Made by a program: the position numbers and the translations under genes. The notes under the pieces were generated by a model. That model was not told where the DNA came from and ran no database searches. It saw only the letters and a list, made by a program, of their open reading frames with translations. This document shows positions 10,275-38,517 of a stretch of 38,971 bases of DNA, one piece after another (position 1 is the stretch's first letter; every line of letters begins with the position of its first letter). Source of the DNA: Paracoccaceae bacterium. Lineage in GTDB: Bacteria; Pseudomonadota; Alphaproteobacteria; Rhodobacterales; Rhodobacteraceae. The stretch lies in assembly GCA_020629115.1 (NCBI GenBank), contig JAHDDY010000007.1, positions 9,064 to 48,034 on the forward strand, in the 5' to 3' direction.

Positions 10275-10615
10275 GTTCCCCCGCGCCCGGTCCCTATGCC
10301 AAGACCGCCGCCCCCGAGGGCGACGCGCCGAAGCGCGCCGAATGGCCCCTGTGGGAGATCTTCATCCGCGGTCAGCACGGCCTGTCGCACCGCCACGTCG
10401 GCAGCCTGCACGCGCCCGATGCGGAGAAGGCGATCCTGAACGCGCGGGACGTCTATACCCGCCGCAACGAGGGGGTGTCGATCTGGGTGGTGGAGAGCGC
10501 GGCCATCGCCGCGTCCTCGCCGGACGAGAAAGGCCCGCTCTACGAACCGGCCAACGACAAGGTGTACCGCCACCCGACTTTCTTCGACATTCCCGACGAC
10601 GTGGGGGCGATGTGA
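10271..10615 (+). CDS. paaB: 1,2-phenylacetyl-CoA epoxidase, subunit B
   Basis: This small subunit is required for assembly and activity of the PaaABCE complex. The core (from about residue 24) contains [42 protein letters not shown] and [13 protein letters not shown], all diagnostic of PaaB. I chose the GTG at 10271, which overlaps the paaA stop as GTGA and gives 114 residues; this adds about 20 N-terminal residues compared with the 95-residue E. coli protein, so a later start cannot be excluded. The stop overlaps the paaC GTG start in the same way, a sign of tight translational coupling. Confidence 0.95.
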
Positions 10616-11406
10616 GCGGATCGGCCCCGGTCGACGGCGCGGTGGGACCGGAGGGCGATACGCGCTTCGAATACCTCCTGCGCCTCGGCGACAACGCGCT
10701 GGTACTGGGCCATCGCCTGTCCGAATGGTGCGGGCGGGGGCCGGTGCTGGAGGAGGATATCGCGCTCGCGAACACCGCGCTCGATCTCATTGGCGGGGCG
10801 CAGATGTGGCTGGGCTATGCGGCGGAGGTGGAGGGGAGCGGGCGCAGCGCCGACGATCTGGCTTTCCTGCGCGACGTGTGGGATTTCCGCAACCTTCTGC
10901 TGGTCGAGCGCCCGAACGGGGATTTCGGGCATACCATGATGCGGCAGTTCCTGTTCGACGCCTTCCACGTCCCCCTGCTCGGCGCGCTGTCCGGTTCCGC
11001 CGACCCGCGCATCGCCGAGATCGCGGAGAAGGCGTCGAAGGAGGCGCGCTATCACCTCGAACGCTCGGCCGAGACCGTCGTTGCGCTGGGCGACGGGACG
11101 GAGGAGAGCCACGCCCGGATGCAGGCCGCGCTCGACGCGCTGTGGCCCTATGCGGGCGAGATGCTGCGCGCCGATGCGGTGGACGAGGCGATCGCGGCGG
11201 CGGGCCTCGGCGCCGACCCCGCCACCCTCGCCCCCGGCTGGGAGCGGACGGTGCGGGCGACGCTGGACGAGGCGACGCTGGCCGTGCCCGAAGGCGATTT
11301 CGCGCATACGGGCGGCAAGTCCGGCGCGAGGCACAGCGAGCATCTGGGACCGATGCTGGCGCAGATGCAATGGTTGCAGCGGGCGTATCCGGGGGCGTCG
11401 TGGTGA
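10612..11406 (+). CDS. paaC: 1,2-phenylacetyl-CoA epoxidase, structural subunit C
   Basis: This 264-residue ferritin-like protein is the non-catalytic partner of PaaA. Typical features are RLGDNALVLGHRLSEWCG, EEDIALANTALDLIG, LLVERPNGDFGHTMMRQF and KEARYHLERSAETVV; the C-terminus ends with HLGPMLAQMQWLQRAYPG, as usual for PaaC. It starts at a GTG overlapping the paaB stop (GTGA). It is followed by a 118-base gap that holds a palindromic repeat before paaD. Confidence 0.95.
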   Translation: MSGSAPVDGAVGPEGDTRFEYLLRLGDNALVLGHRLSEWCGRGPVLEEDIALANTALDLIGGAQMWLGYAAEVEGSGRSADDLAFLRDVWDFRNLLLVERPNGDFGHTMMRQFLFDAFHVPLLGALSGSADPRIAEIAEKASKEARYHLERSAETVVALGDGTEESHARMQAALDALWPYAGEMLRADAVDEAIAAAGLGADPATLAPGWERTVRATLDEATLAVPEGDFAHTGGKSGARHSEHLGPMLAQMQWLQRAYPGASW

Positions 11407-11416
11407 TATCGAGGTT

Positions 11417-11501
11417 GTCATTGCCCGGCTCGACCGGGCAATCCAGGGGGGCAATACCGTTGTCGGTTGCCCTGGATCACCCGGTCAAGCCGGGTGATGA
11501 C
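11417..11501. repeat. Inverted pair of 29-nt hairpin units inside the paa operon
   Basis: Unit 1 (11417-11445) is GTC, stem ATTGCCCGG, loop CTCGA, the complementary stem, CCA. Unit 2 (11473-11501) is the same pattern in reverse orientation: TGG, stem ATCACCCGG, loop TCAAG, complementary stem, GAC. The two units can also pair with each other outside the stems (ATCCAGGG 11441-11448 with CCCTGGAT 11470-11477). Related pairs occur at 20579-20650 and 22871-22962. The element fills nearly the whole paaC-paaD gap and may affect transcript stability or termination there. Confidence 0.85.
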
Positions 11502-11524
11502 CGCGGTCTCGTTGCGGCAGCGCC

Positions 11525-11986
11525 ATGACCCGCCCCTCGACCGATACAGTCTGGGAATGGCTCGACGCCGTGCCCGACCCGGAGATACCCGTCATCTCCG
11601 TGGTCGATCTCGGCATCGTGCGGGGCGTCGCATGGCGGGGCGAGACGCTGGAGGTGGCGGTCACGCCGACCTATTCGGGCTGTCCCGCGACCTCCGTCAT
11701 CGCGCTCGACATCGAGACGGCCCTGCGCGACCGGGGCATCGCGGACGTCGCCGTCACGCGCCAGCTCTCGCCCGCCTGGACGACCGACTGGCTGTCCGAG
11801 AAGGGCCGCGCGAAGCTGGAGGACTACGGCATCGCCCCGCCGCGCCCCGCCGGGGGGCCGGAACGGTGCCCCCTGTGCCACGGCGTCGACCTGCACCGGA
11901 TCAGCCGGTTCGGTTCGACGCCCTGCAAGGCGCAATGGCGCTGCGCCGACTGCCTCGAACCGTTCGACTACTTCAAGTGCCTGTAG
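11525..11986 (+). CDS. paaD: PaaD, MIP18-family iron-sulfur assembly factor for the epoxidase
   Basis: This 153-residue protein has an N-terminal DUF59/MIP18 domain (about 5-105) with DPEIPVISVVDLGI and the reactive-cysteine motif SGCPA (Cys53). A C-terminal zinc-ribbon-like part follows with Cys115/Cys118 (CPLC), Cys134, Cys140/Cys143 (CADC) and a terminal FKCL. PaaD is thought to help mature the metal or iron-sulfur centres of the PaaABCE system. Its ribosome-binding site is poor, and the region before it is occupied by the palindromic repeat. Relative PaaD expression may therefore differ from that of paaABC; this is an inference. Confidence 0.95.
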   Translation: MTRPSTDTVWEWLDAVPDPEIPVISVVDLGIVRGVAWRGETLEVAVTPTYSGCPATSVIALDIETALRDRGIADVAVTRQLSPAWTTDWLSEKGRAKLEDYGIAPPRPAGGPERCPLCHGVDLHRISRFGSTPCKAQWRCADCLEPFDYFKCL

Positions 11987-12002
11987 CAGAGAGGATATTC
12001 CG

Positions 12003-12359
12003 ATGAGCGATCACACCGCCTCCCCCCGCGCCGTCGTCGACGCCTACGTCACCGGCACGCGCACTCGCGACATCGCGCTTCTGAAAACGATCTTCCATGG
12101 CGACGCGGTGATGACCGGCTGGCTCGGCCCGGACCTGCTGGTCGGCGGGCCGGAGCCGTTCTACGGCGCGCTGGAGGCCAACGAGGTCGGGCCGGACTAT
12201 ACCGCCGAGGTGTTCGCGGTCGAGGAGGACGGCTCCATCGCCACCGCCGAACTGCGGGAGACGAACCTCCTCGGCCTCGCTTTCGTGAACCATTTCCAGC
12301 TCGTCAGGCTGGGCGACGGGACCTGGCGCATCGCGGCCAAGCTCTTTCGCCACGCCTGA
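12003..12359 (+). CDS. NTF2/SnoaL-like small protein within the paa operon
   Basis: The 118-residue sequence looks like an NTF2-fold protein of the putative lumazine-binding/SnoaL group: an initial helix (RAVVDAYVTG), the motif TIFHGDAVMTG, FYGALEAN, and a beta-rich end reading NHFQLVRLGDGTWRIAAKLF. Members of this family bind small ligands or act as hydrolases/isomerases, but no clear catalytic set can be assigned here. GAGAGGA precedes the ATG. It lies 16 bases after paaD and 9 before paaE, so it is almost certainly cotranscribed with the epoxidase genes. It is not a canonical paa gene. Confidence 0.75.
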   Translation: MSDHTASPRAVVDAYVTGTRTRDIALLKTIFHGDAVMTGWLGPDLLVGGPEPFYGALEANEVGPDYTAEVFAVEEDGSIATAELRETNLLGLAFVNHFQLVRLGDGTWRIAAKLFRHA

Positions 12360-12368
12360 GCCGCGCCG

Positions 12369-13436
12369 ATGGTCCGCTTCCATCCCCTGACCGTAACCGA
12401 CGTGCGCAGGACGATCCGCGACGCGGTGATCGTGACCCTGCGCCCGCGCGACGAGGACGCCGCCGCGTTCGACTTCACGCAAGGCCAGTACCTCACCTTC
12501 CGCCGCGACTTCGACGGCGAGGAACTGCGCCGGTCCTACTCCATCTGCGCGGGGCTGGACGACGGCGCCCTGCGGGTGGGGATCAAGAAGGTCGCGGGCG
12601 GGGCGTTCTCGACCTGGGCCAACGAGGGCCTGCGCCCGGGCGACGTGCTGGAGGCGATGCCGCCCATGGGCCGCTTCCACGCGCCGCTCGATGCGGATGC
12701 GGCGCGCCATTACCTGATGTTCGCGGGCGGGTCCGGGATCACGCCGGTCCTGTCGATCCTGCGCACCGTGCTGGCGCGCGAGCCGCATTGCCGGGTCACG
12801 CTGGTCTACGCCAACCGCGCGGTGAACACGATCATGTTCCGCGAGGAGCTGGAGGATCTCAAGAACGCGCATATGGGCCGCGTCACGGTGGTCCATGTGC
12901 TGGAGACCGACGCGCAGGAGATCGAGCTGTTCACGGGCCGGGTGGACGCGGAGAAATGCGCGCGCCTCTTCGCGGGGTGGATCGACGTAGCCTCGGTCGA
13001 CCTGGCCTTCATCTGCGGGCCGGAGCCGATGATGCTCGCCATCGCGGGGGCGCTGCGGGAGCACGGCCTGCCCGAGGACCGCATCCTCTACGAACTGTTC
13101 GCCAGCGGCCAGCCGGGCCGTGCCAGGCGCAGGGCCGTCGCCGGGGCGGAGACGGGCGGGGCGACGGAGGCGCGGGTCACGCTCGACGGCGCGACGCGCA
13201 GCTTCCGCATGGACCGCGAGACGAGCGTGCTCGACGCCGCGCTGGAGAACGCGCTGGAGGCCCCCTACGCCTGCAAGGCCGGCGTCTGCTCCACCTGCCG
13301 CGCCCGGGTGGTCGAGGGCGAGGTGGAGATGCGCGCCAATCACGCGCTGGAGGACTACGAGGTCGCCCGCGGCTACGTCCTGACCTGCCAGAGCTATCCG
13401 GTCGGCGAGCGGGTGGTGGTGGATTACGACGGGTAG
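12369..13436 (+). CDS. paaE: 1,2-phenylacetyl-CoA epoxidase reductase subunit E
   Basis: PaaE transfers electrons from NAD(P)H through FAD and a 2Fe-2S centre to the PaaA diiron site. The 355-residue protein shows the order expected: a ferredoxin-reductase FAD domain with RRSYSIC (about residue 54-60), a nucleotide-binding domain with FAGGSGITPVLSIL and ICGPEPMM, and a C-terminal plant-type ferredoxin with Cys302, Cys307, Cys310 and Cys340 (CX4CX2CX29C). It closes the paa operon; the next gene converges from the other strand 36 bases away, and no obvious intrinsic terminator is seen in that gap. Confidence 0.96.
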   Translation: MVRFHPLTVTDVRRTIRDAVIVTLRPRDEDAAAFDFTQGQYLTFRRDFDGEELRRSYSICAGLDDGALRVGIKKVAGGAFSTWANEGLRPGDVLEAMPPMGRFHAPLDADAARHYLMFAGGSGITPVLSILRTVLAREPHCRVTLVYANRAVNTIMFREELEDLKNAHMGRVTVVHVLETDAQEIELFTGRVDAEKCARLFAGWIDVASVDLAFICGPEPMMLAIAGALREHGLPEDRILYELFASGQPGRARRRAVAGAETGGATEARVTLDGATRSFRMDRETSVLDAALENALEAPYACKAGVCSTCRARVVEGEVEMRANHALEDYEVARGYVLTCQSYPVGERVVVDYDG

Positions 13437-23013: not shown

Positions 23014-23985
23014 TCACCCCGCCATCACCTGGATCGCCGCCGGGCCGATGATGACCACGAACAGGACCGGCAGGAAGAACACGATCATCGGCACCGTCAG
23101 CTTGGCCGGCAGCGAGGCGGCCTTGCGCTCGGCGATGGACATGCGCTCGCCCCGGCTCTCCTCCGACAGGACGCGCAGCGCCGAGGCGATGGGCGTGCCG
23201 TAGCGCTCGGCCTGCACCATCGCGCCGGTCAGGGCCTTGATCGCCGGCAGGCCCGTGCGCCGCGCGAAGTTCTCGTAGGCCAGCGAGCGGTCGCCGAGAT
23301 AGGCCAGCTCGGCATTGGTCAGCGCGATCTCCGATGCCAGTTCCGGTCCCTGGAGGGCGATCTCCTCAGAGACCTTGTGGAACGACTTCTCGATCGACAT
23401 CCCCGCCTCCACGCAGATCACCGTCAGGTCCAGCGCGTCCGGGAAGGCCCGTTGCAGGCTGACCTGCCGCTTCTGCGTCTTGTTCTTCAGCAGGACGTTG
23501 GGCAGGGCGTAGCCGACGAGGATCACGACGATCGAGATGATCGAGTGGCGCATCGGCTCGAACGGCGCGGCGTAGATCGCCGCGAAGTAGAACATCGCGA
23601 AGCCGCCCATCAGGAAGGGCGCGACGAGGCGGAAGAACAGGAAGACGATCGGTGCCTTGGTCCCGCGAAAGCCCGCCTGGGCCAGCTTCATGCGCAACTC
23701 GGTATTGTCGAGCATCTCCTGCATGCGGAACCGTTCGATGGTCCGGCGCATGACGCGGATGGTGCTGTCGTCCAGATCGCCCTTCTTCTTCTTTTTCGCA
23801 TCGACACGCATCTTCTCCTTCATCGCGTCGCGCTTCTGGACGACGCCCGCGACCCGCGAGCGCGCCATCCGGCCCGCCCCCACCCTAGGCAGGAAGGCGA
23901 CGACGAGGAGGAAGACGGCAAGGCCGGCGAAGACCTGGGCGAGGAGGCCCTGGTCGAGGCCGAGAGACTGCAGAAGAGACATCAT
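23014..23985 (-). CDS. tadC: TadC, inner-membrane platform protein of the Tad system
   Basis: This 323-residue GspF-family (T2SSF) protein has a membrane helix near the N-terminus (about 16-33), a basic cytoplasmic segment with a run of five lysines (KKKKK, about 63-67), two central helices (about 112-160), the F-domain with FPDALDLTVICVEAGMSIEKSF and EIALTNAELAYLGDRSLAYENFARR, and a C-terminal helix pair. It forms the inner-membrane platform with TadB. It lies 13 bases after tadB and is the last gene of the operon; tadD, which often follows, is absent, and the operon ends at a palindromic repeat. Confidence 0.94.
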   Translation of the reverse strand: MMSLLQSLGLDQGLLAQVFAGLAVFLLVVAFLPRVGAGRMARSRVAGVVQKRDAMKEKMRVDAKKKKKGDLDDSTIRVMRRTIERFRMQEMLDNTELRMKLAQAGFRGTKAPIVFLFFRLVAPFLMGGFAMFYFAAIYAAPFEPMRHSIISIVVILVGYALPNVLLKNKTQKRQVSLQRAFPDALDLTVICVEAGMSIEKSFHKVSEEIALQGPELASEIALTNAELAYLGDRSLAYENFARRTGLPAIKALTGAMVQAERYGTPIASALRVLSEESRGERMSIAERKAASLPAKLTVPMIVFFLPVLFVVIIGPAAIQVMAG

Positions 23986-23998
23986 GGCGCGGGTTCCC

Positions 23999-24988
23999 TC
24001 AGATCTCGACGTCGATCATCGAGTACATGGCGAAGATGCCGATCGACATCCAGAAGCCGCCCCCCGCCAGAAGCATGTTGCCCATGTCCGTCGTGAAGAG
24101 GAGGCCGAGATAGTCGGGGGCGACGAGGTAGAGCAGGACCGCCAGCACGAAGGGCAGCGAGCCGATGATCATGGCCGAGGCCTTCGCCTCGGACGACAGC
24201 GCCTTGATCTTGAGCTTGAGCTTCTTGCGGTCGCGCAGGGTGGTCGAGAGGTTGCCCAGCGCCTCGGACAGGTTGCCGCCCGTCTGCTTCTGGATCGTCA
24301 GCACGATGTTGAAGAAGTTGACCTCCGGAAGCGGGATGCGGGTGAACATGCGCTGGAGCGCGTCCTCCAGCGTCACCCCGACCGCCGTGGCATCGGTCAG
24401 GAGCTTGAACTCCGTCGCCACCGGCTCGGGGATCTCGCGCGCGACCAGGCGCATCCCCTCGTTCACGGGCAGGCCGGTACGCACCCCGCGCACGAGGATG
24501 TCGATGGCGTCCGGGAACAGGGCGATGAACTTCTTCTGGAGCCGCTTCATGCGGAACTTCGCGATCCTGCCCGGCAGCAGGAAGACGATGACGGGCAGGA
24601 TGGCGGCCGCGAAGAGGGTCGGCACGCCCTGGACCGTGAGCAGCGCGACGAGGCCGACGCCGATCGCCGCGCAGACGAGGCGCAGCTTGAGCGCCGAGAT
24701 ATCCATGCGCGCGCGCACCAGCATGATGTCCAGCGAGGCCTTGTTGCCCCGGCGGGTCGCCTCCTCCTGCTTGCGCAGCTGTTCCTGGATGTCCTTGCGC
24801 TTGTCGGCGATGGTACCGCGCGTCTTCGCGTCCTTGGATGTAGCGAGGCCGAGGCGGGATACGCCGCCCACGGCGGTGCGCATCCCCAGAAGGGCGTACA
24901 TGAACCCGTAGACGGAGGCGAAGGCGAGCGCGCCCGTCAGCCATCGAAGGCCGGTCGGGCCGAGGGCGACGTGCAGGGCCTCGAACAT
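23999..24988 (-). CDS. tadB: TadB, inner-membrane platform protein of the Tad system
   Basis: I place the start at ATG 24988 (MFEALHVALG), which has GAGGAG nine bases upstream, rather than the in-frame start at 25036; this gives 329 residues. The protein has an N-terminal helix, a basic helical stretch, two central membrane helices (about 122-155), and the T2SSF domain with FPDAIDILVRGVRTGLPVNEGM and TGGNLSEALGNLSTTLRDR, as in TadB. It pairs with TadC and the CpaF ATPase to drive pilus assembly. A 108-base gap containing a hairpin separates it from cpaF. Confidence 0.94.
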   Translation of the reverse strand: MFEALHVALGPTGLRWLTGALAFASVYGFMYALLGMRTAVGGVSRLGLATSKDAKTRGTIADKRKDIQEQLRKQEEATRRGNKASLDIMLVRARMDISALKLRLVCAAIGVGLVALLTVQGVPTLFAAAILPVIVFLLPGRIAKFRMKRLQKKFIALFPDAIDILVRGVRTGLPVNEGMRLVAREIPEPVATEFKLLTDATAVGVTLEDALQRMFTRIPLPEVNFFNIVLTIQKQTGGNLSEALGNLSTTLRDRKKLKLKIKALSSEAKASAMIIGSLPFVLAVLLYLVAPDYLGLLFTTDMGNMLLAGGGFWMSIGIFAMYSMIDVEI

Positions 24989-25054
24989 GATGGGGGTCTC
25001 CTCATCGGGGTATGCGGGGGCCAGGGTAGCGGCCACTGCCTGATATTCCGTATA

Positions 25055-25072
25055 GACGGATCGCCATCCGTC
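25055..25072. other. Hairpin in the cpaF-tadB gap
   Basis: GACGGAT (25055-25061) and ATCCGTC (25066-25072) form a perfect 7-bp stem with a 4-base loop, in the longest gap of the tad operon. There is no U-tract on the minus strand, so it is more likely an RNA-processing or stability element than a terminator. Confidence 0.4.
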
Positions 25073-25096
25073 GAGCGTGGATCGCCCGGCATCGAC

Positions 25097-26866
25097 CTAT
25101 CCGGTCGTATCCTCTTCCATCGAAGCGAGCGCATCCTGCAGCTCGACGTCCATGTTGTACCCGCGGGCGCGTTCCCAGAAGGCGGGCTGGCCGATGCCGG
25201 TCGAGACGTGCTTGCCGATCAGCTTGCCGTCCTTGTCCTCGCCGGTGATCTTGTAGAGCACGAGATCCTGCGTCACGAGGGTATCGCCCTCCATGCCCAG
25301 CACCTCCGAGATATGCGTGATGCGGCGGGAGCCGTCGCGCAGGCGCTGGGCCTGCACCACGACGTTGATCGCCGAGCACATCATCTCGCGGATGGTCTTG
25401 GACGGCAGGGCGAAGCCGCCCATCGTGATCATGGATTCCACGCGGCTCAGCCCCTCGCGCGGGGAGTTGGCGTGGAGCGTGCCCATCGAGCCGTCATGGC
25501 CCGTGTTCATCGCCTGCAGCAGGTCGAAGGCTTCCGGCCCGCGCACCTCCCCGACGATGATCCGTTCGGGGCGCATCCTGAGACAGTTCTTCACCAGGTC
25601 GCGCATCGTGACCTCGCCGCCGCCCTCCAGCTTGGGCGGACGTGTCTCCAGCCTGACCACGTGCGGCTGCTGAAGCTGCAGTTCCGCCGAGTCCTCGCAG
25701 GTGATGATGCGCTCGTCGTCGCCGGCAAAGCCCGAGAGACAGTTGAGCAGGGTCGTCTTGCCCGAGCCGGTACCGCCCGAGATGAGGATGTTGCAGCGGC
25801 AGGCGGCGGCGATCTGGATGACCTTGGCCGCCTCCGGCGTGAGCGCCCCGAACTTGATCAGGTCGCTCATCTTGAGCTTGTCCTTCTTGAACTTTCGAAT
25901 CGTCAGCGTCGCGCCGTCGATCGAGAGCGGCGGGGCGATGACGTTGACGCGCGAGCCGTCGAGCAGGCGGGCGTCGCAGATGGGCGAGGATTCGTCGACC
26001 CGGCGGCCGACCTTCTGCACCATGCGCTGACAGATTTCGAGGAGCTGGCCGTTGTCGCGGAAGCGGATGTTGGTCAGCTCGATCTTGCCCTCGGTCTCGA
26101 TGTAGACCTGTTCGGCCCCGTTCACCATGATGTCGGCGATGTCGTCCCGCGCCAGAAGCGGCTCCAGCGGGCCGTAGCCCAGCACGTCGTCGCAGATGTC
26201 GTCCACGAGCCGCTTCTGCTCGGTGATCGACATGATGTGGCCCTTGACCGCGATGATCTCGTTGACGATCTGGCTGATCTCGCCCTCGGCGTCGGTCCGG
26301 GCCAGGGCCACGATGCGGCTCATGTCCATCGCGTCGATCAGGGAGGCGAAGATCTCGGCCTTGAGGTCGTAATAGGCCTGGTTGTGGGTGAAGTTGCGTT
26401 CGCCGTCTGCCCGGGCCGCGACGGGCCTTTCCGCTTCGATCTTCTTGACCTTGGTGCGCTTGCGGCTTGCTCCGAAGCCGCTCTCGCGCTCGCGCATGTC
26501 CTCGATGCCGTGGATCACGTCCGCCTCGTCGGAATCGCGGGCGCGGAGCGGGCGGTCGATATCGGCGGGCAGCATGTGGTCGGACGGTTCAAGCGGGGCC
26601 GCGCGCTCGCGTTCTTCCGGTCCGGTACCCTCTACCGGCCTGCGGGCCGGGGCCTGGGGGCGGGGCGGGGCCTTGGAACGCGACAGGTCCGCATTGAGCG
26701 CGTCCATCGGCCTCGGCTTCACGTTCGGAGCCGGGCGTGACCCCGCGGCTGCACCGGGGCGCGGCGGGGGCGGGGGCGGTCCCTTGCGTGCACCGGGCAC
26801 GCGGGGCCGGCTGCCCGGCTCCGCGCCGTCCTGGGAATCGGTATCGTTCGTGCGTTTGCTGAACAT
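25097..26866 (-). CDS. cpaF: CpaF/TadA secretion ATPase
   Basis: This hexameric ATPase powers Tad pilus assembly at the cytoplasmic face. Key motifs are [18 protein letters not shown] (about 221-238), DIMVNG, Walker A GGTGSGKT (364-371), the Asp box around [12 protein letters not shown], the Walker B region RIIVGEVRG (435-443) and the His box GTLHANS (462-468). All catalytic features are intact. At 589 residues it is longer than many CpaF proteins because of an N-terminal region of about 155 residues that is rich in Pro, Arg and charged residues and has no recognisable domain. Confidence 0.96.
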
Positions 26867-26928
26867 GAAGGGTCTTCCGCCGTGAACTGCTGCTCATGCG
26901 CCTGCGCGCGGGGTGGGAGGAGGGACGG

Positions 26929-28254
26929 TCAGGGGGCCTTTCCCCGTTCGGCGGGCGCCTTGGCCATCTTCTTCTTCAGGCGTTCGAGGAAGCCGTTGAG
27001 ATCGAACCCCTTGAGCGCCATGCCGGCCTTGCCACGCCCGGACTTCTTGAGTGCCGTCCGGCTGGCCGCGACCGTCTCGCCGAGCTGCGCGATCAGGGCG
27101 GCGGCCTCGTGCTTGGGATTGACCTCCTCGACCATCTGCCCGTTGTTCATCGCCTCGCCGAACAGGGCCGGGTCGTGGGGGATGATCAGGTCGATCTTGC
27201 GCCCGATGATCTCGGTCACGTCGCTGGCGGCGATCTCGGGCCGCTTCGGGATGCCGACCTGATTGAGCACGACGCGGGGCGGGTCGTCGTTGGGCCGGCG
27301 CGCGGCCAGCAGGTCGTGGAACGCCTTGAGGTTGCGCAGGCTGGCCAGCTCGGGCGTGGCGACGAGGACGATCTCGTCCATCTGCATCACCGCGCGCTGG
27401 ACCCAAGGCGCCCAGCTGTGCGGGATGTCGAACACGGCGTAGTCGGTCGAGGCGCGGATGGTCTGGATGGTGTCGATGACGGTGTTCTCGTCGAACTCGC
27501 TCTCCACCTCCAGCGAGGAGGGGGCGGCGAGGATCGAGAGGTAGTCGTCGTGCTCGATCAGCAGCCGCTGGAGCTTCACGTCGTCCAGCTCCTCCGCCCC
27601 GGTAAGGGCGTCGAGCACGGTGCGGGTGGGGTCGCGGTTGAAGTCGAGGCTCGCGGTGCCGAACTGGATGTCCAGATCGACCAGCATCACGTCCTTCTTC
27701 TCGGTCTGCGCGATCTTCCAGGCCGCATTGTGGGCGAGGGTCGAGGCCCCCGCGCCGCCCTTCACGCCGACGAAGCCGATGGTGCGGGCCATCGGCGCGA
27801 GGCCCGGCTCGGCGAAGACGGTGGCGATGGCCTCGATGATCTGGATCGGCGAGGCGGGGGAGACGATGTACTCGTCCACCCCCTGCCGCTTCAGTTCGCG
27901 GTAGAGCATCACGTCGTTGGACGGGCCGCAGACGATGACCTTGGTGTCGGGGTCGCAGACGTTGGCCAGTCCCTCCAGCTCGTCGAAGACTTCGAGACCC
28001 GTCAGGTCGGTCTCGACCAGCAGGAGGTGCGGCGTGGCCGCCTCGTCGTAGGTCTCGATGGCGCGCTTGATGCCGCCCATCGCCACGGCGATGGAGGTGC
28101 GGGCCATGCGCCGGTCGTAGGCCGATTCCTGGATGGCGGTGGCCATGGGGCCGGTGGTGCAGAAGGATTCGATGTCGATCCGCGGGATGAGCGTCTCGAT
28201 CGGGCCGGAAAGCCCCTGATCTTCGTAGGCTGTGGATTGCGCCGCAGAGGGCAT
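26929..28254 (-). CDS. cpaE: CpaE/TadZ, receiver-ParA-like localisation ATPase
   Basis: The start is set at ATG 28254 (MPSAAQSTAY) with AGGAGA seven bases upstream, giving 441 residues. An atypical receiver-like domain (about 53-150) is followed by a MinD/ParA-type ATPase with the deviant Walker A GVKGGAGAST (163-172) and LVDLDIQFG. TadZ/CpaE proteins position the Tad machine at a cell pole. The C-terminus is basic (RLKKKMAKAPAERGK). It lies 28 bases after the cpaD-like gene and 62 before cpaF. Confidence 0.93.
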   Translation of the reverse strand: MPSAAQSTAYEDQGLSGPIETLIPRIDIESFCTTGPMATAIQESAYDRRMARTSIAVAMGGIKRAIETYDEAATPHLLLVETDLTGLEVFDELEGLANVCDPDTKVIVCGPSNDVMLYRELKRQGVDEYIVSPASPIQIIEAIATVFAEPGLAPMARTIGFVGVKGGAGASTLAHNAAWKIAQTEKKDVMLVDLDIQFGTASLDFNRDPTRTVLDALTGAEELDDVKLQRLLIEHDDYLSILAAPSSLEVESEFDENTVIDTIQTIRASTDYAVFDIPHSWAPWVQRAVMQMDEIVLVATPELASLRNLKAFHDLLAARRPNDDPPRVVLNQVGIPKRPEIAASDVTEIIGRKIDLIIPHDPALFGEAMNNGQMVEEVNPKHEAAALIAQLGETVAASRTALKKSGRGKAGMALKGFDLNGFLERLKKKMAKAPAERGKAP

Positions 28255-28282
28255 GGCCGGTCTCCTGTCTTGGCGGCGTGCT

Positions 28283-28654
28283 CTATTGGATGAGGTCGGT
28301 CGTGCCCCGGGCATCGGGTGCGGTCGCGGTCGAATCACCCGTCCGGTAGGCTTCCAGCACGCGCTGGCGCGCCTGCGGGTCGGAGGGTGTCATGGCGCGG
28401 GGGCGGACCAGATCGCTCGGATCGGCGATCATCACCGCCATGTTGCTCTGGTGCGAGCACCCGAAGCCCGGCGTCGCGGCGTTCTGGGTGTTGTGGCGCA
28501 TGTCCGGCTGCTGGATGTCGCCGCAGTCGTAGACCTTGCCCAGCTCGTATTCCTGCCAGGGGTCGTAGAACGCGTCCTTCTGTTCCCGGGCGCAGCCCTG
28601 CGCGAGGGCGAGGACCGCGAGAAGGGCGGAGAGGCGGATGGGTGTCTGTGTCAT
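28283..28654 (-). CDS. cpaD: Short CpaD-like pilus biogenesis lipoprotein
   Basis: Starting at ATG 28654 the product is 123 residues with a lipoprotein signal peptide (LALAQGCA, lipid-modified Cys at about residue 21). The body contains GFGCSHQSNMAVMIADPSDLVRPRAMTPSD, which matches the C-terminal signature of CpaD (GC...NLAAMVADPRDL). Usual CpaD proteins are about 200 residues or more, so the N-terminal half is missing or very divergent. Its location between the secretin and CpaE genes supports the assignment. CpaD is an outer-membrane lipoprotein of the Tad secretin complex. Confidence 0.82.
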   Translation of the reverse strand: MTQTPIRLSALLAVLALAQGCAREQKDAFYDPWQEYELGKVYDCGDIQQPDMRHNTQNAATPGFGCSHQSNMAVMIADPSDLVRPRAMTPSDPQARQRVLEAYRTGDSTATAPDARGTTDLIQ

Positions 28655-28676
28655 CGTGTCCGTGCCTTCTTGCGGA

Positions 28677-30908
28677 TTATTCGAGGATGAAGCCGAAGGG
28701 CGCTTCGAGCGCGTCCTTGGCCCCGGCCTGGTGCGTGTGGTCCGTCGCCACGCCGTCTTCGCCGCCATAGACCTTGTGCAGGCGGCCGAGGACGAAGAGG
28801 TCGAAGTCGCTGGCGGGGGCGAAGCCGTCGGTGGGCAGGCGGAAATCCTTTTCCTGGCCGGGCTTGACGATGTACGGCGTCACGAGGATCACCAGCTCGG
28901 TCTCCTGCTTCTGGTAGTCGGTCGAGGAGAAGAGCTGGCCGAGGATGGGCAGGTTCTTCAGACCCGGCAGGCCGGTATGGGCGTTCGCGTCGCGCTGCAG
29001 CAGCATCCCGGCGATGGACATCGTGCCCCCCGAGGGCAGCTCGACGGTGGTGTTCGCCTTGCGGATCGAGATGCCGGGAATGGTCAGGTCGCCCGTCGAG
29101 AGCGAGCCTTCGGTGGTCAGCTCGCTGATCTCGGTGGCGACGGTGAGGCTGATTCGCCCGTCCCCGACGACGACCGGCGTGAATTCCAGCGCCACGCCGA
29201 AATCGCGGAAGGTGAAGCCGATGTTGCCGTCGTCGACGGAGGTGGGGTAGGGGAACTGCCCGCCCGCGAGGAAGCTGGCCGTCTCGCCCGAGACGGCGGT
29301 CAGCGTCGGCTCGGCCAGGACGCGCATGACGTTGTGCCGCTCGAAGGCGCGGACGAGCGCGCCGAAGTTGGTGCTTTCGAAAGAGCCGGCGATATTGGCG
29401 GCGATGCCGCCCAGGGCGGTGCCGTTGACGCCGAAGGCGTTCGAGATCGAGCCGAAGTCGGTCAGGTTGCTGGCGATGCCGCCCGTGGCCGCCGAGAGGG
29501 CCGCGTCGGAGGCGAGGTTGAAGTCGACGCCGAACTGTTTCACCACCGACCGGCGCATCTCCGCGATGCGCACCTTTACGAGAATCTGGTCTTCGGCGGT
29601 GGAGTTGATGCGGTCGACGAAGCTCACGTCGTCGAGGCTCGCGTCGACGCCCGCGCTGGTCATGGCCGAGTAGAGATAGCGCCGCACGAGGTTGCGCACC
29701 GCGTCGGCCTCGGCCGCGCCGTCGACCGCGCCGGAGACGATCACGTCGTCGAGCACGGACTTGACCTCGATGACGAGGCCGGGAAACGATTCGGCGAGTG
29801 CCCGGCGCAGGGGGCGCAGGTCGAAGCGCACGTTCGCGTCGAGGCTGAGGATCTGCTTGCCGTCCTCGTCGAAGGCGGTGACGCTGGTCGGACCGGGCTG
29901 CAGACCGATGAGCACCATCTGCCGGGCGGTGCGCAGGACGGCGCGGACCCGGGTGGGGTCGGCGACGAGGATCTCGTGCGCCTCGGTGGGCAGCTCGACG
30001 ATGGTGGACTTGGCGACGAACAGCGCGGCATCGCGTCCGGCGGGGCCGTCACCGGCGCGCTTGAGGACCGACGGCCCGTAGGCGCCGTCCCCGTCCATGG
30101 CGAAATCGCTGCCGGAGCGCAGCAGGGGCGTGGGTTCGAGGCTGGCGTAATGATCGACGACCGGGGCCGGCTCGAAGGGGAGCGGCTCGGCGTACAGGGG
30201 TGCCGCGACGGGCGGCAGGGTCTCCATCACGTAGGGTTCGGGGGCGATGGAATGCGTCTCCACGACATGCTGCACGATCGGTGCCAGAGGCGGCGCGGCG
30301 TACAGGGGTGCCGCGTGCATAGGCTCCGACTGCATAGGTGCCGCGTACATGGGTGGGGCCTGCATGGGTGCGGCCTGCATAGGCGCGGGTTCGGCGTAGG
30401 TGGGCGCGGGGCGCGGCATGGGCGCGTAGAGCGGGGCGGTGTGCGGCGTCGGGGCCGCGTCCTGGCGGACGATGGTGCCGTTCTCGACGGTGTAGCCGAA
30501 ATCCCCGGACCCCGAGATGGTGCCGCCCGTCATCCCCGCCGAGGCGTCGATGCTGCCGCCGCCCTCGTCGAAGACGCCCTGCAGGCTCTGCAGCGTCACC
30601 GTGTCGAGCGGGGCGGGGGCGGCGTCGAAGATGTCGGGTGCCATGGGCGTCGTGACCATCCGGTCGGCCATCGCGGAGCCGGTGCTCCCAAGGGGCGCGG
30701 CGGTGACGGGACCGGACGGTCCGTCGGTCTCGTCGCGGTACTGGATCGAGCCGTCGGGCGCGACGAAGTAGCCTGCCTGGGACGAGGCCCCCGGCGTGGT
30801 GAGCGAGACGCCCGCGCCGCTCTGGGCGACGGTATCGGGCGGCGCGGCGAGGACGAGCGCCGTGGCGGTCAGGGCGACGGCGGTGGCGGTCATGGCCGAA
30901 GGGCGCAT
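28677..30908 (-). CDS. cpaC: CpaC/RcpA outer-membrane secretin with a long N-terminal extension
   Basis: The conserved CpaC part begins near residue 296: the N-terminal pilus domain (STIVELPTEAHEILVADPTR), a BON-like segment (SVLDDVIVSGAVDG), then the secretin core with VRIAEMRR, VLAEPTLTAVSGETASFLAGG and EFTPVVVGDGRISL. It ends near LVILVTPYIVKP plus 40 residues. Residues 1-295 are an added region with a signal peptide (cleavage near TVAQS) and a Pro/Met/Ala-rich repeat. I chose ATG 30908 (GGAGAG upstream); ATG 30953 overlaps the cpaB stop and has GGAGG, but the codons between them lack the usual GC bias. With a normal secretin of about 450-500 residues, 743 is unusual. Confidence 0.92.
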   Translation of the reverse strand: MRPSAMTATAVALTATALVLAAPPDTVAQSGAGVSLTTPGASSQAGYFVAPDGSIQYRDETDGPSGPVTAAPLGSTGSAMADRMVTTPMAPDIFDAAPAPLDTVTLQSLQGVFDEGGGSIDASAGMTGGTISGSGDFGYTVENGTIVRQDAAPTPHTAPLYAPMPRPAPTYAEPAPMQAAPMQAPPMYAAPMQSEPMHAAPLYAAPPLAPIVQHVVETHSIAPEPYVMETLPPVAAPLYAEPLPFEPAPVVDHYASLEPTPLLRSGSDFAMDGDGAYGPSVLKRAGDGPAGRDAALFVAKSTIVELPTEAHEILVADPTRVRAVLRTARQMVLIGLQPGPTSVTAFDEDGKQILSLDANVRFDLRPLRRALAESFPGLVIEVKSVLDDVIVSGAVDGAAEADAVRNLVRRYLYSAMTSAGVDASLDDVSFVDRINSTAEDQILVKVRIAEMRRSVVKQFGVDFNLASDAALSAATGGIASNLTDFGSISNAFGVNGTALGGIAANIAGSFESTNFGALVRAFERHNVMRVLAEPTLTAVSGETASFLAGGQFPYPTSVDDGNIGFTFRDFGVALEFTPVVVGDGRISLTVATEISELTTEGSLSTGDLTIPGISIRKANTTVELPSGGTMSIAGMLLQRDANAHTGLPGLKNLPILGQLFSSTDYQKQETELVILVTPYIVKPGQEKDFRLPTDGFAPASDFDLFVLGRLHKVYGGEDGVATDHTHQAGAKDALEAPFGFILE
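30291..30380. repeat. 15-bp tandem repeat inside cpaC
   Basis: Six imperfect 15-base units (plus-strand type GGTGCCGCGTGCATA) follow each other in register. They encode a pentapeptide-like repeat, A-P-M-x-A, in residues about 177-206 of CpaC. An extra copy of part of the unit (around 30190-30207) encodes another Leu-Tyr-Ala stretch. Being in-frame, copy-number change would lengthen or shorten the secretin extension without frameshift. Confidence 0.75.
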
Positions 30909-30949
30909 TCTGTTCTCTCCGGTTGCGGAAGGGCCGGGGCGGGATCGGC

Positions 30950-32056
30950 TCATCGGTTCGCCTCCGTCGCGGGGGTGGACGTGGTGCGCACCTTGATCGC
31001 CGCGCCGTTGCGGACGAGGACGACCCCGTCGTCTTCCGGCGCGGGTGCGGGCGCCCCGTTCGCGGGCGCGGTTCCGTTCTGCGCGGCGCGCAGGCGCTGG
31101 GTCTGGGCGCGCGCCTCCTCGTCCCGGCGGCGCTTCAGGGCGTGCTGCTCGGCCTGGAACTGCTCAGCCAGTTCGCGCATCTCGTTCGCGCGCTCGATCT
31201 TGGACCGCGCGAGGGCCTGGAGGTCGAGAATCGTCTCGGGCATGATCTTGTCGATGTCCTCGCCGTATTCCTCGACCAGCTCCGAGAAGCTGCGCAGCGA
31301 GAGGGTGAGAAAGCCGCGCTCCTGCTTGGCGATCTGCCGCGTCAGGGAGATCAGCTCGACCTGATCGGGCGTCAGTTCGATGGTCGCGGTGTTGCCGATA
31401 GCGCTGGCATTGCCGTTATCGGTCGTCTCGGCGAGGCGCTGGTCGATGGCCAGCACGCGGACGGTGGCCATGACCGTGTCGGTCTGGTTATGCGTCACCG
31501 TGCGGTCGATGAGGCCGGTGGAGGGGTTGAACTCCTCGACGTTGATCTGCCGGGTCAGCAGCAGGTCGACGAAGTCGCCCGGCAGGATGAAGCCGCCCGC
31601 GCCGGTGATGTCGGAGATGGGCACGGCCACGGCGCGCATGCCCTTGCGCAGCAGCGAGGCCATGACGCCCGCGCCCTGGAGATTGACGATCTTCTCGGTC
31701 GAGAGCGGCTCGCCAGCGCGGATCAGGGTGCGCGCGGCGGTGCCGGTCACGGTCTGGACCGCGTTCTCGTCGTCCTGCCGGGCGTAGAAGTAGGGCGAGA
31801 CGATCTCGGCGGGGAAGGCCTGCCACTTCACGTCGTTCCCCTCCAGTGTGCGCCCGATGGGAATGTCGCGCGCGGCGACGAGGACGTCGATCGTCTTCGG
31901 GGCCTGGACGGCGGGCTTGGCCGGCTCTCGCGCGGCGACCGAGACGGCCGGCGCGGAAACGGTGGCGCGGCTCTCGATGGCCCCGCGCATCAGCCACATC
32001 GCCGCCATCGCCGCGACGGAGGCACAGGCCAGGATAAGAACTCTCACGCCACGCAT
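30950..32056 (-). CDS. cpaB: CpaB/RcpC periplasmic Tad assembly protein
   Basis: This 368-residue protein has one N-terminal membrane anchor (about 5-23), a SAF domain (about 55-120: IDVLVAARDIPIGRTLEGND, LIRAGEPLS) and an RcpC/CpaB domain (MRAVAVPISDITGAGGFILPGDFVDLLLT). The last 100 residues form a charged helical region (RSKIERANEMRELAEQFQAE) and a short tail. CpaB sits in the periplasm with the CpaC secretin. AAGGAGAG precedes the ATG. It is the first tad gene in this window; a pilin or prepilin-peptidase gene, usually upstream, is not found in the adjacent 390 bases. Confidence 0.94.
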   Translation of the reverse strand: MRGVRVLILACASVAAMAAMWLMRGAIESRATVSAPAVSVAAREPAKPAVQAPKTIDVLVAARDIPIGRTLEGNDVKWQAFPAEIVSPYFYARQDDENAVQTVTGTAARTLIRAGEPLSTEKIVNLQGAGVMASLLRKGMRAVAVPISDITGAGGFILPGDFVDLLLTRQINVEEFNPSTGLIDRTVTHNQTDTVMATVRVLAIDQRLAETTDNGNASAIGNTATIELTPDQVELISLTRQIAKQERGFLTLSLRSFSELVEEYGEDIDKIMPETILDLQALARSKIERANEMRELAEQFQAEQHALKRRRDEEARAQTQRLRAAQNGTAPANGAPAPAPEDDGVVLVRNGAAIKVRTTSTPATEANR

Positions 32057-34972: not shown

Positions 34973-35965
34973 CTACAGCCCCCGCGCCCGGGGACGATAG
35001 CCCGGCACCCGCGCGGCGCGCTCGGCGAGGCTAGCATGGGCGGCCTGCCCGTCCTGTCCCGGCGTCGCCTCGCGCGGGCGGCGCAGCAGGAACAGGCGGT
35101 TGATGCCGCGACGCGACCCGACCATCGGCGCGCTTGGGTCCGGGTGCAGGCGCGCGCGCCATCCTTCCGGCAGCAGGAGGCCCCGCCCGGCGGCCCGTTC
35201 CAGCATCCAGACGAGGCTGAGCAGCGTGAGCGGGATCGGCGGGACGAGGCAGCCGCGCTCGCCGCCCACGTCGCCATGCGCCCCCGGAAACCATACCTGC
35301 CGCATCTCCCCTTCCCACGTACCCCGGCTCCACAGGACCGGCGTGAAGCTGGTCCGGTCCTCGTCGGCGGCGAGCGCCTGGAAGGCCGCGCGGACGGAGG
35401 GACCGAGCGCGGTGTCGTGGAAGCCAGCCGCCACCGGAAAGAAGCGAGAGACGAGCGGGTAGGGCAGGCCGAGCGCCTTGACCGTATCCCAGACGCCTAC
35501 CGTGGCGATCTCGACCCGGTCGTGGCAATGCGCCCGGCGGAAGGCCCGCGCCGCATGGCCCGATTCGGCGCGTTCGTAGATGCGGAAGGCGCGCGTCACC
35601 CGGCGCTGGGTCGCCGCATCGCGCCGCAGCAGGCCCACCCGGTCGATCATCCCCGCGATGCAGCGCACGGCATAGGCCCCTCGGCTGAAGCCGAACAGGT
35701 AGATCCGGTCGCCGGGGCGGTAGCGGCTGGCTAGGGTCGCATAGCCGTCCATCACGCTGCGGTTGAACCCGCGGCCGATGGCCGCATCGACCCACTTGGA
35801 CGCCCCCGACCCCTGCACGCCCGGATGGTAGCCCAGCGTCTGCCGCGCGCCGCCGTCGGCCTCGGACAGCAGGCGGTGCAGCCGGCCGGCATGGGTCAGG
35901 CAGTCGTCGTCCAAGCGGCTGAGCGTGCCGTCGACGATGAAGACGTGGTTGCGCGGCTCAGGCAT
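34973..35965 (-). CDS. DUF2235 alpha/beta hydrolase (Tle1-like)
   Basis: This 330-residue protein starts at ATG 35965, overlapping the end of the prephenate dehydratase gene by eight bases. It has the DUF2235 motifs: HVFIVDGTLSRL at the N-terminus, the nucleophile elbow GFSRGAY (Ser94), GVWDTVKALG (Asp160) and FPGAHGDVGGE (His230), a plausible Ser-Asp-His triad. DUF2235 includes type VI secretion phospholipase effectors, but no T6SS genes or immunity gene are next to it and there is no signal peptide. A housekeeping esterase role is equally possible. It has no clear relation to pheA beyond co-transcription. Confidence 0.87.
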   Translation of the reverse strand: MPEPRNHVFIVDGTLSRLDDDCLTHAGRLHRLLSEADGGARQTLGYHPGVQGSGASKWVDAAIGRGFNRSVMDGYATLASRYRPGDRIYLFGFSRGAYAVRCIAGMIDRVGLLRRDAATQRRVTRAFRIYERAESGHAARAFRRAHCHDRVEIATVGVWDTVKALGLPYPLVSRFFPVAAGFHDTALGPSVRAAFQALAADEDRTSFTPVLWSRGTWEGEMRQVWFPGAHGDVGGERGCLVPPIPLTLLSLVWMLERAAGRGLLLPEGWRARLHPDPSAPMVGSRRGINRLFLLRRPREATPGQDGQAAHASLAERAARVPGYRPRARGL

Positions 35966-36836
35966 CGCCCCGGAAGGGATGACGCGGGTAGACGCCGAGG
36001 ATGCGGATGTAGCTGGTGAAATGGTCCAGCTCCGCCATGGCGGCGGCCACATGCGGTTCCTCGGGGTGGCCCTCGATATCGGCGATGAACTGCGTCGCGG
36101 TGAACGACCCGTCGAGCATGTAGCTCTCCAGCCGGACCATGTTCACCCCGTTCGTGGCGAAGCCGCCCAGCGCCTTGTAGAGCGCCGCCGACAGGTTCCT
36201 GACCCGGAAGACGAAGCTGGTGATGGACGGCGCGCCCGGCGCGGGGGCCAGGGCGCGGGGGCTGGCGACCATGAAGCGGGTCGTGTTGTGCTCGGCATCC
36301 TCGATGTCGCGGGCGAGCAGGTCCAGCCCGTAGATCTCCCCCGCCAGCTCCGAGGCGACGGCGGCGGCGCTCGCGTCCCCCCACTCGCTCACCAGCCGCG
36401 CCGAACCGGCCGTGTCCGGCCCCGCCACGGGCAGGATGGCGCGCGCGTTGAGAAAGCGGCGCACCTGACCCAGCGCCACGTTGAGGCTGTGCGCCGTACG
36501 GATGCCGTCAAGGGACGCGCCGGGCAGGCCCAGAAGCTGCATCCGGATGGGCAGGAAGTGCTCGGCGACGATATGCAGCCCCGAGTCGGGCAGCAGGTGG
36601 TGGATGTCCGCCACCCGCCCGTAGAGCGAGTTCTCGACCGGCAGCATGGCCAGCGCCGCCTTGCCGTCGCGCACCGCCGCGATGGCCTCCTCGAAGGTTG
36701 GGCAGGGCAGGGTCTCGCGGTCCGGGAAGACCTGATTGCAGGCCTGGTGCGAGAACGCCCCCGGCTCGCCCTGGAACGAGATCGCGTCCCCGTCCTTGAG
36801 GAGCGTGTCGAGGTTCGCCGCGATTTCTTGACGCAT
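35958..36836 (-). CDS. pheA: Prephenate dehydratase (monofunctional, with ACT domain)
   Basis: The enzyme converts prephenate to phenylpyruvate in phenylalanine synthesis. ATG 36836 (GAAGGG upstream) gives 292 residues, right for the monofunctional form. The catalytic domain (about 17-195) has ISFQGEPGAFSHQA, PVENSLYGRVADIHHLLP and the active-site motif NTTRFMV. The ACT domain (about 205-285) has FRVRNLSAALYKALGGFATNGVNMVRLES, the phenylalanine-binding regulatory region, and ends near ILGVYPRHP. It is divergent from the cytochrome gene over 133 bases and overlaps the DUF2235 gene at its 3' end. Confidence 0.95.
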   Translation of the reverse strand: MRQEIAANLDTLLKDGDAISFQGEPGAFSHQACNQVFPDRETLPCPTFEEAIAAVRDGKAALAMLPVENSLYGRVADIHHLLPDSGLHIVAEHFLPIRMQLLGLPGASLDGIRTAHSLNVALGQVRRFLNARAILPVAGPDTAGSARLVSEWGDASAAAVASELAGEIYGLDLLARDIEDAEHNTTRFMVASPRALAPAPGAPSITSFVFRVRNLSAALYKALGGFATNGVNMVRLESYMLDGSFTATQFIADIEGHPEEPHVAAAMAELDHFTSYIRILGVYPRHPFRGDA

Positions 36837-36969: not shown

Positions 36970-38517
36970 ATGGCGATGGACGAACTTGAGATCAGTAAGA
37001 TTGTCGGAGCGGGGTGCGCGGCGCTCCTGGCCTTCGTCGGTTTCGGACAACTCGGGTCCGCCCTCGTCGGCGTCGATCAGCTCGACGAGCCGGCCTACCG
37101 GATCGAGCTGCCCGAAGCCGAGGACATGGCCGCCGTCGCCGAGGACGAGGGACCGATGCCCGTCGGCCAGCTCATGGCCATGGCCGTCATGGACGAGGGG
37201 CCGAAGGTCTTCCGCAAGTGTTCCGCCTGCCACAAGATGGACGACGGGGCCAACGGCGTCGGCCCCCATCTCTACGGCGTGGTCGGACGCGATATCGGGA
37301 GCGTGGACGGCTACGCCTATTCCGATACGCTGATGTCGAAGGAGGGTCCGTGGGACTTCGCCGCGCTCGACGGCTTCCTGGAGGACCCCAAGGGCTGGGC
37401 GCCGGGCACGAAGATGGGCTTTGCCGGCCTGTCAAAGCCTGAGGACCGCGCCTCCGTCATCGCGTGGATGAACGAGCAGAGCGCGAATCCCCTGCCGCTG
37501 CCCCCCGTCGAGGCCGCCGAAGTCGAGGAGGTCGAGGTCGCGTCGGTCGAGCGGGAGGAGGCCGCGCAGGTCGAGGCCGCCATCGACGCGGATGCCCAGG
37601 AAAGCCAGACCGTCGAAAGCGCCTCCGAGGAGGTCATGGAGGGGCGCGAGGCCCCCGCCCCGGCCATCGAGATGACGAACGAGGCGGCGGGCGACGTGAA
37701 ATCCGCCGATAGCGAGCGCCTCGACAACGAGCCGCGGCCCGGCGAGGTCGATCCTGCCGTGACCGCCGTCGAGCAGGAGGTCGTGACCGACGGGGATCGC
37801 GGCGACGACGGCTCCGACGTGACCAGCGGCGAGGACAGCCGCGTCGTCGGCACCGAGGCCGTGGTCGAGGAGCCGGGCGAGGAAGTCCGTATCGAACCCG
37901 AGACCGATTCGCAGCCGATGGCCGTCGAGGAACCTGACCGTGCCGTCGTGCCGGCGGATGACGAGATCGTCGTCGCCGAGGCCGACACGGATGCCGCGGT
38001 CGTCGAGGACGAAACTCTCGCCGAGGTCGTCGACGAGGCCGCGACGGACGAGACGGTCGTCGTCGACGCGACGCCCCCCGCCGAGGAAGAGCAGCAGGTC
38101 GCCGTCCTGGAGACCGACGAGCCTGCCGCTGAGGAAGAGGCCGTCGTCGCCGTGGCGTCCGCCGCCGCCGTGCCCGCCTGGCTCGTCGGGGCCGATGCGG
38201 ACAAGGGCGCGCGTGTCTTCCGCCGCTGCCAGGCCTGCCACAAGGTCGATCCCGCCGCGGGCAACGCCGTCGGGCCGAACCTCTACGACGTCGTCGGCCG
38301 CGATATCGGCTCCGTCGATTACGCCTATTCGGATGCACTGGCGGGCAAGGGCGGCGTGTGGGACTTCGAGGCCCTCAATGGCTTCCTGCTCAAGCCCCGC
38401 GACTGGGCACCCGGCACGAAGATGGCCTTCCCCGGTCTGCGCAAGGAGCAGGACCGCGCCGACGTCATCGCCTATCTGAACGCGAACGGCGAGAACCCCG
38501 TCGATCTTTCCGAGTGA
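36970..38517 (+). CDS. Membrane-anchored protein with two cytochrome c domains and an acidic linker
   Basis: This 515-residue protein starts at ATG 36970 (AAGGAA upstream) with an uncleaved-type N-terminal helix (about 8-35, ISKIVGAGCAALLAFVGFGQ), as in CycM/cytochrome c552. Domain 1 has the haem site CSACH (Cys84, Cys87, His88) and axial Met149 (GTKMGF). Domain 2 repeats this with CQACH (Cys420, Cys423, His424) and Met485 (GTKMAF). Both contain VVGRDIGSVD and a PGTKM region, so they arose by duplication. The roughly 225-residue linker is unusually acidic: about 70 of residues 181-390 are Asp or Glu and about 9 are Lys or Arg. It probably shuttles electrons between bc1 complex and an oxidase in the periplasm. 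Confidence 0.9.
   Translation: MAMDELEISKIVGAGCAALLAFVGFGQLGSALVGVDQLDEPAYRIELPEAEDMAAVAEDEGPMPVGQLMAMAVMDEGPKVFRKCSACHKMDDGANGVGPHLYGVVGRDIGSVDGYAYSDTLMSKEGPWDFAALDGFLEDPKGWAPGTKMGFAGLSKPEDRASVIAWMNEQSANPLPLPPVEAAEVEEVEVASVEREEAAQVEAAIDADAQESQTVESASEEVMEGREAPAPAIEMTNEAAGDVKSADSERLDNEPRPGEVDPAVTAVEQEVVTDGDRGDDGSDVTSGEDSRVVGTEAVVEEPGEEVRIEPETDSQPMAVEEPDRAVVPADDEIVVAEADTDAAVVEDETLAEVVDEAATDETVVVDATPPAEEEQQVAVLETDEPAAEEEAVVAVASAAAVPAWLVGADADKGARVFRRCQACHKVDPAAGNAVGPNLYDVVGRDIGSVDYAYSDALAGKGGVWDFEALNGFLLKPRDWAPGTKMAFPGLRKEQDRADVIAYLNANGENPVDLSE

What the first reader, a model, noticed from the sequence alone, without database searches (positions are those of the whole stretch)
36970..38517. Tandem cytochrome c with a 225-residue acidic linker
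The sequence shows two near-identical class-I cytochrome c domains in one membrane-anchored polypeptide. They are joined by a linker in which a third of the residues are Asp or Glu, giving a net charge near -60. CycM and cytochrome c-y proteins are known with one haem domain and a shorter flexible linker. The arrangement suggests a tethered two-haem electron wire, the outer haem reaching far from the membrane while the acidic linker gives an extended, mutually repelling chain. It could link bc1, an oxidase and a distant or extracellular acceptor.
Basis: partly seen in the sequence, partly recalled or inferred. Interest (0 to 1): 0.6.

Follow-up and report, generated by a model that had tools for sequence, protein, structure and literature searches.

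The report
Two-headed membrane-tethered cytochrome c (CycM)
A common bacterial respiratory electron carrier that normally has one haem on a membrane tether has, here and repeatedly elsewhere in alphaproteobacteria, been duplicated into two (occasionally three) haem beads strung on a long, strongly negative flexible chain, which would give one anchor several electron-carrying heads.

Summary
Window 36970-38517 (+) encodes a 515-residue protein: one N-terminal membrane helix, haem domain D1, a ~230-residue acidic linker (70 Asp/Glu, 9 Lys/Arg, net -61) and haem domain D2. Both domains keep CXXCH and the axial Met. They are 64% identical, not near-identical. It is the CycM (cytochrome c552/cy) orthologue: best structural match is P. 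denitrificans c552, and divergent pheA sits beside it in 78 of 80 named loci. CycM occurs in 345 of 348 family genomes, nearly always with one haem. I found 33 tandem proteins, two with three haem domains (one is Rubrimonas cliftonensis). The window linker is the longest and most negative of 35. D2 copies do not form one clade (AU p = 2e-6, tandem domains only), so the doubling probably arose several times; within the window's genus it arose once and was lost once. The host has bc1, one aa3 oxidase, no cbb3, a soluble c2-like protein and SoxXA. Best reading: a two-headed tethered carrier on the bc1-to-aa3 route, with the acidic linker as a disordered spacer. Nothing supports an extracellular wire. 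No description was found in nine searches of open papers. New variant of a known kind.

The parts
36970..38517 (+). tandem CycM gene, 515 aa, stop included
   Evidence: open frame and translation; same gene in four congeners
36982..37065 (+). N-terminal membrane anchor helix, residues 5-32
   Evidence: hydrophobic sequence; AlphaFold helix 5-32; conserved in single- and two-domain CycM
37066..37170 (+). short acidic anchor-to-D1 spacer, residues 33-67
   Evidence: residues 1-70 hold 13 D/E and 2 K/R; pLDDT < 50 for 32-59
37171..37479 (+). haem domain D1, residues 68-170; CXXCH codons 37219-37233, axial Met149 codon 37414-37416
   Evidence: profile match 159 bits; Pfam PF00034 twice in the protein; ligands invariant
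37480..38181 (+). acidic disordered linker, residues 171-404 (234 aa, 70 D/E, 9 K/R, net -61)
   Evidence: AlphaFold low confidence from about 210 to 395
38182..38484 (+). haem domain D2, residues 405-505; CXXCH codons 38227-38241, axial Met485 codon 38422-38424
   Evidence: profile match 151 bits; best Pfam stretch 410-504; structure matches
35958..36836 (-). divergent pheA-like gene (prephenate dehydratase), the conserved CycM neighbour; context, not part of the protein
   Evidence: translation (name from sequence knowledge); tblastn finds it in 171 loci, 78 of 80 named ones

Best explanation
This is the CycM (cytochrome c552/cy) orthologue turned into a two-headed electron carrier by an in-gene duplication of the haem domain, with D2 held on a long disordered polyanionic spacer. 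Shown: architecture, orthology, intact haem ligands in both domains, purifying selection on D2, recurrence, and bc1 and aa3 as the host's chain. Inferred: both domains bind haem and are reduced by cytochrome c1 (and other periplasmic donors). Each then diffuses on its tether to the CuA site of aa3. One anchor thus holds two carriers near the complexes, and D2 sweeps a larger radius (about 14-22 nm by simple chain scaling). The linker acts by composition, not sequence: it stays extended, soluble and off the anionic membrane, and it does not bury the haem edges.
For: CycM orthology: closest solved relatives are P. denitrificans c552 and R. capsulatus cy, and pheA lies beside it in 78/80 named loci. 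All 33 D1 and 35 D2/D3 domains keep CXXCH and axial Met. dN is well below dS for D2. 34 of 35 linkers are negative (median net charge per residue -0.25) although their sequences do not align. The host has a single haem-copper oxidase of CtaD (aa3) type and bc1, no ccoN, and no second CycM. In R. capsulatus, tethered cy carries electrons from bc1 to the oxidase with a 69-residue linker, and about 45 residues suffice for respiration (PMC7876108).
Against: No experiment. Haem attachment, redox potentials and partners of D2 are inferred. The host also has a soluble c2-like protein, so a second head is not obviously needed. D1 is more acidic than single-domain CycM (mean -4.1 versus +0.2) and than D2 (24 pairs versus 4), which hints at different roles rather than two equal heads. 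One close congener, G003, has lost D2, so D2 is dispensable there.
Confidence: 0.55

Rival explanations
1. Division of labour: D1 does the classic bc1-to-oxidase job near the membrane, while D2 on its long tether collects electrons from (or delivers them to) periplasmic enzymes such as SoxXA or peroxidases, replacing or helping soluble c2.
For: D2 is less acidic than D1 in 24 pairs against 4; the host encodes SoxX and SoxA; a c552 of this kind is the native acceptor of a periplasmic arsenite oxidase (PDB 8ed4); the long linker gives reach.
Against: The charge comparison is not corrected for shared ancestry; a soluble c2-like protein is present anyway; no link between the tandem form and a particular partner was tested except cbb3, which shows none (Fisher p = 0.78).
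Confidence: 0.2
2. Near-neutral expansion: repetitive acidic tails and repeated haem domains come and go by slippage and recombination, and D2 adds little.
For: Gains are repeated and at least one loss occurred (G003); some linkers are short tandem repeats (G017, G053, G009); acidic tails without D2 exist, 182 aa in G309.
Against: Haem ligands kept in 35 of 35 D2/D3 domains; dN below dS for D2; D2 retained across five species of the genus.
Confidence: 0.15
3. One reading: D2 carries electrons far from the membrane to an outer-membrane or extracellular acceptor.
For: Reach of 14-22 nm by chain scaling (contour 84 nm) is of the order of the periplasm; a paralogue in G016 fuses an anchored cytochrome c to an MtrC/MtrF-like multihaem part.
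Against: No MtrB/PioB match in the host (silent control, so weak); two haems on a disordered chain are too far apart for direct hopping; ordinary respiratory partners are present.
Confidence: 0.06
4. The acidic linker is mainly a proton or cation buffer at the membrane surface, as proposed for the acidic, Asn-rich segment of cytochrome c in alkaliphilic Bacillaceae.
For: Very high acidic content; the H+-capacitor proposal exists for membrane cytochromes c (PMC12457358).
Against: That segment lies between anchor and haem, whereas this linker lies beyond D1; it does not explain a second haem domain; no sign that the hosts are alkaliphiles was sought.
Confidence: 0.04

Closest known systems
CycM / cytochrome c552 of Paracoccus denitrificans
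   Same: Anchor, class I domain, best structural match (3m97, 9fks)
   Different: P. denitrificans protein is 176 aa with one haem domain; this has a second haem domain and a ~230-aa acidic linker
Cytochrome cy (CycY) of Rhodobacter capsulatus
   Same: Uncleaved anchor, flexible linker, class I haem domain, bc1-to-oxidase carrier (PMC7876108)
   Different: One haem; its 69-aa linker lies between anchor and haem, not between haem domains
Dihaem cytochromes c made of two class I domains (c4, actinobacterial QcrC, Thermus c550)
   Same: Two class I-like haem domains in one chain
   Different: From general knowledge these have short or packed inter-domain contacts, and QcrC is a bc1 subunit; here the domains are far apart on a disordered linker and arose from CycM
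Multi-domain 'beads' cytochromes of Geobacter (GSU1996 type, from memory)
   Same: Repeated haem modules in a string
   Different: Those modules are trihaem c7 domains with short connections; unrelated fold and no membrane anchor of this kind

Membership tests
CycM / cytochrome c552 / cytochrome cy (membrane-anchored class I cytochrome c) | N-terminal uncleaved membrane anchor | tested here: met
   Hydrophobic segment, predicted helix 5-32, aligned with single-domain CycM; non-cleavage itself not testable
CycM / cytochrome c552 / cytochrome cy (membrane-anchored class I cytochrome c) | Class I cytochrome c domain with CXXCH and axial Met | tested here: met
   Both domains
CycM / cytochrome c552 / cytochrome cy (membrane-anchored class I cytochrome c) | Orthologous place in the genome (divergent pheA) | tested here: met
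   pheA neighbour in 171 loci, 78 of 80 named; no second CycM in the host
CycM / cytochrome c552 / cytochrome cy (membrane-anchored class I cytochrome c) | Single haem domain (usual architecture; descriptive rather than defining) | tested here: not met
   Two domains; hence 'variant'
CycM / cytochrome c552 / cytochrome cy (membrane-anchored class I cytochrome c) | Carries electrons from bc1 to an oxidase | not testable with these tools
   bc1 and one aa3 oxidase are present; transfer itself needs experiment
Dihaem cytochrome c4 | Two class I domains packed together through a short linker | tested here: not met
   Linker 234 aa, predicted disordered; pTM 0.34
Porin-cytochrome extracellular electron conduit (MtrAB/PioAB) | Outer-membrane MtrB/PioB porin in the genome | tested here: inconclusive
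   No TIGR03509 match in the host, but the control genomes were silent too

The most novel reading that the evidence does not exclude
Alphaproteobacteria have repeatedly evolved polyvalent CycM carriers, two or three haem beads on polyanionic disordered spacers. Their outer heads reach well beyond the bc1-oxidase neighbourhood and hand electrons across much of the periplasm, to other complexes or outer-membrane partners, as a flexible 'tethered relay'.
Probability: 0.12. Interest if true: 0.8.

Novelty: new variant of a known kind. Interest (0 to 1): 0.5.

Why it matters
How membrane-tethered cytochromes c find their partners, and why some bacteria tether the carrier while others and mitochondria use a soluble one, is an open question in supercomplex work (discussed in PMC8361435). 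A natural series with one, two and three heads, linkers of 44 to 234 residues, repeated gains and a loss within one genus gives ready-made variants for testing tether length, charge and valency.

Tried and rejected
Assembly artefact: rejected, as the same architecture occurs in several congeners and in isolates. A single ancient duplication: rejected on tandem domains alone (AU p = 2.3e-6), but only marginal when 70 single-domain rows are added (p = 0.056); a further subset (p = 5e-8) was chosen after seeing a tree, so I give it no weight. Gene conversion between D1 and D2 could mimic independent duplications and is not excluded. Link with cbb3 oxidase: none (27 of 33 tandem versus 37 of 47 single genomes have ccoN). 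MtrB/PioB: no hit, silent control. Plasmid copies: only partial, lower matches. Nine paper searches, one of them on the genus rather than the protein, found no account of tandem CycM; the library lacks most subscription journals.

Full report
What is there. Window 36970-38517 (+) is an intact frame of 515 codons. Residues 5-32 form a hydrophobic helix, followed by a short acidic spacer, haem domain D1 (68-170), an acidic linker (171-404) and haem domain D2 (405-505). Pfam PF00034 matches twice. CXXCH starts at residues 84 and 420; the axial methionines are 149 and 485 in the alignment of ten relatives. The linker has 70 acidic and 9 basic residues, net -61. D1 and D2 share 64% identity over 102 residues, so they are clear duplicates but not near-identical. 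AlphaFold, run on an alignment of ten tandem proteins, gives two confident domains and a linker mostly below pLDDT 50, with pTM 0.34, meaning no fixed arrangement of the domains.

What it is. Sequence and fold searches put both domains with class I cytochromes c, and anchor plus D1 with cytochrome c552 (CycM) of Paracoccus denitrificans and cytochrome cy of Rhodobacter capsulatus. The divergent neighbour encodes a pheA-like protein (named from sequence knowledge). tblastn with it finds it beside CycM in 171 loci, 78 of the 80 named ones, so the tandem gene is the CycM orthologue and not an extra copy. The host has no second CycM. The closest named record is an uncultured Neomegalonema (L140), of the Rhodobacterales.

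How widespread. CycM is found in 345 of 348 genomes sampled across the window's family, about one per genus. Most are about 175-200 residues with one haem. Tandem forms number at least 16 of those 348 (a 17th, G140, runs off its contig) and at least 13 of about 380 genomes across the class. With four congeners this makes 33 complete tandem proteins. These are lower bounds because match lists were cut. Two proteins have three haem domains: G114, and G136, which is Rubrimonas cliftonensis. Named hosts of two-domain forms include Rubricella aquisinus, Limibaculum sediminis, three Roseovarius species and a Geminicoccaceae MAG. Linkers run from 44 to 234 residues (median 107), 34 of 35 are net negative with median -0.25 charges per residue, and the window's is the longest and most negative. 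Some single-domain CycM proteins carry acidic tails and no second domain, up to 182 residues in G309.

History. In the domain trees, D1 and D2 of the window's genus group together with good support. Forcing all D2/D3 domains into one clade is rejected on the tandem domains (p = 2.3e-6), but only marginal with single-domain rows added (p = 0.056); domains are short and many forks are open. Several independent duplications are the simplest reading, with gene conversion as an untested alternative. A tree of the neighbouring PheA, independent of the cytochrome, puts single-domain G003 inside the tandem clade of the genus (100/100) and single-domain G005, G001, G011, G012 and G004 outside it: one gain inside the genus and a later loss in G003. 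Both domains evolve under purifying selection (for G008/G009, dN/dS about 0.12 for D1 and 0.08 for D2; dS is near saturation in other pairs).

How it likely works. The host has bc1 with an ordinary cytochrome c1, exactly one haem-copper oxidase, of CtaD/aa3 type, no ccoN, a soluble c2-like cytochrome and SoxX and SoxA. In R. capsulatus, tethered cy moves electrons from bc1 to the oxidase; its anchor-to-haem linker is 69 residues and about 45 suffice for respiration (PMC7876108). By simple chain scaling a 234-residue linker spans about 14-22 nm and keeps D2 at roughly 0.2 mM around D1 (inference). So I read the protein as a two-headed tethered carrier: D1 close to the membrane, D2 sweeping a wider area, both able to visit c1 and CuA. 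The linker's job is set by composition: disordered, soluble, extended. D1 tends to be more acidic than D2 (24 pairs to 4, sign test p = 2e-4, not corrected for ancestry), which leaves room for a division of labour with periplasmic donors such as Sox.

What it is not shown to be. Nothing supports an extracellular wire. Two haems held many nm apart on a disordered chain cannot hop directly; they must diffuse into contact. The MtrB/PioB search was negative but its control was silent. The tandem form shows no link with cbb3 oxidase.

Verdict. The architecture is a recurrent variant of CycM, with a natural one-, two- and three-head series, which I could not find described in the open literature available here. 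Interest is moderate: the parts are familiar, but the repeated evolution and extreme linker make carrier tethering and valency directly testable.

Noticed in passing
L053:2184-3767 (genome G016): An anchored cytochrome c domain is fused through an acidic linker to a multihaem part matching MtrC/MtrF domains and cytochrome c7; G016 also has a separate single-domain CycM-like hit. A possible inner-membrane to outer-membrane electron link.
   Followed up: partly
L147:3907-5734 and L068 (Rubrimonas cliftonensis, G136); L078 (G114): Three-haem tandem CycM proteins with two acidic linkers each.
   Followed up: partly
L071 (genome G309): Single-domain CycM with a 182-residue repetitive acidic tail (ATDAASDAAD units) and no second haem domain.
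   Followed up: no
L057:474-1481 (genome G013): YceI-like domain joined to a class I cytochrome c domain by an acidic stretch.
   Followed up: no
L001, L003, L008 (host contig C228): The window's host carries SoxX and SoxA cytochromes, so it may oxidise reduced sulfur and feed electrons to cytochromes c.
   Followed up: partly
window 23014-32056 (-): A run of genes that read like a Tad/Flp pilus cluster (CpaB, secretin, CpaE, CpaF, TadB, TadC), judged from sequence only.
   Followed up: no
window 9297-13436 (+): Genes that read like the phenylacetyl-CoA epoxidase set (paaA-E), judged from sequence only.
   Followed up: no
window 34973-36052 (-): A DUF2235-like hydrolase frame overlaps the end of pheA; a likely start near 35962 would couple the two genes.
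   Followed up: no
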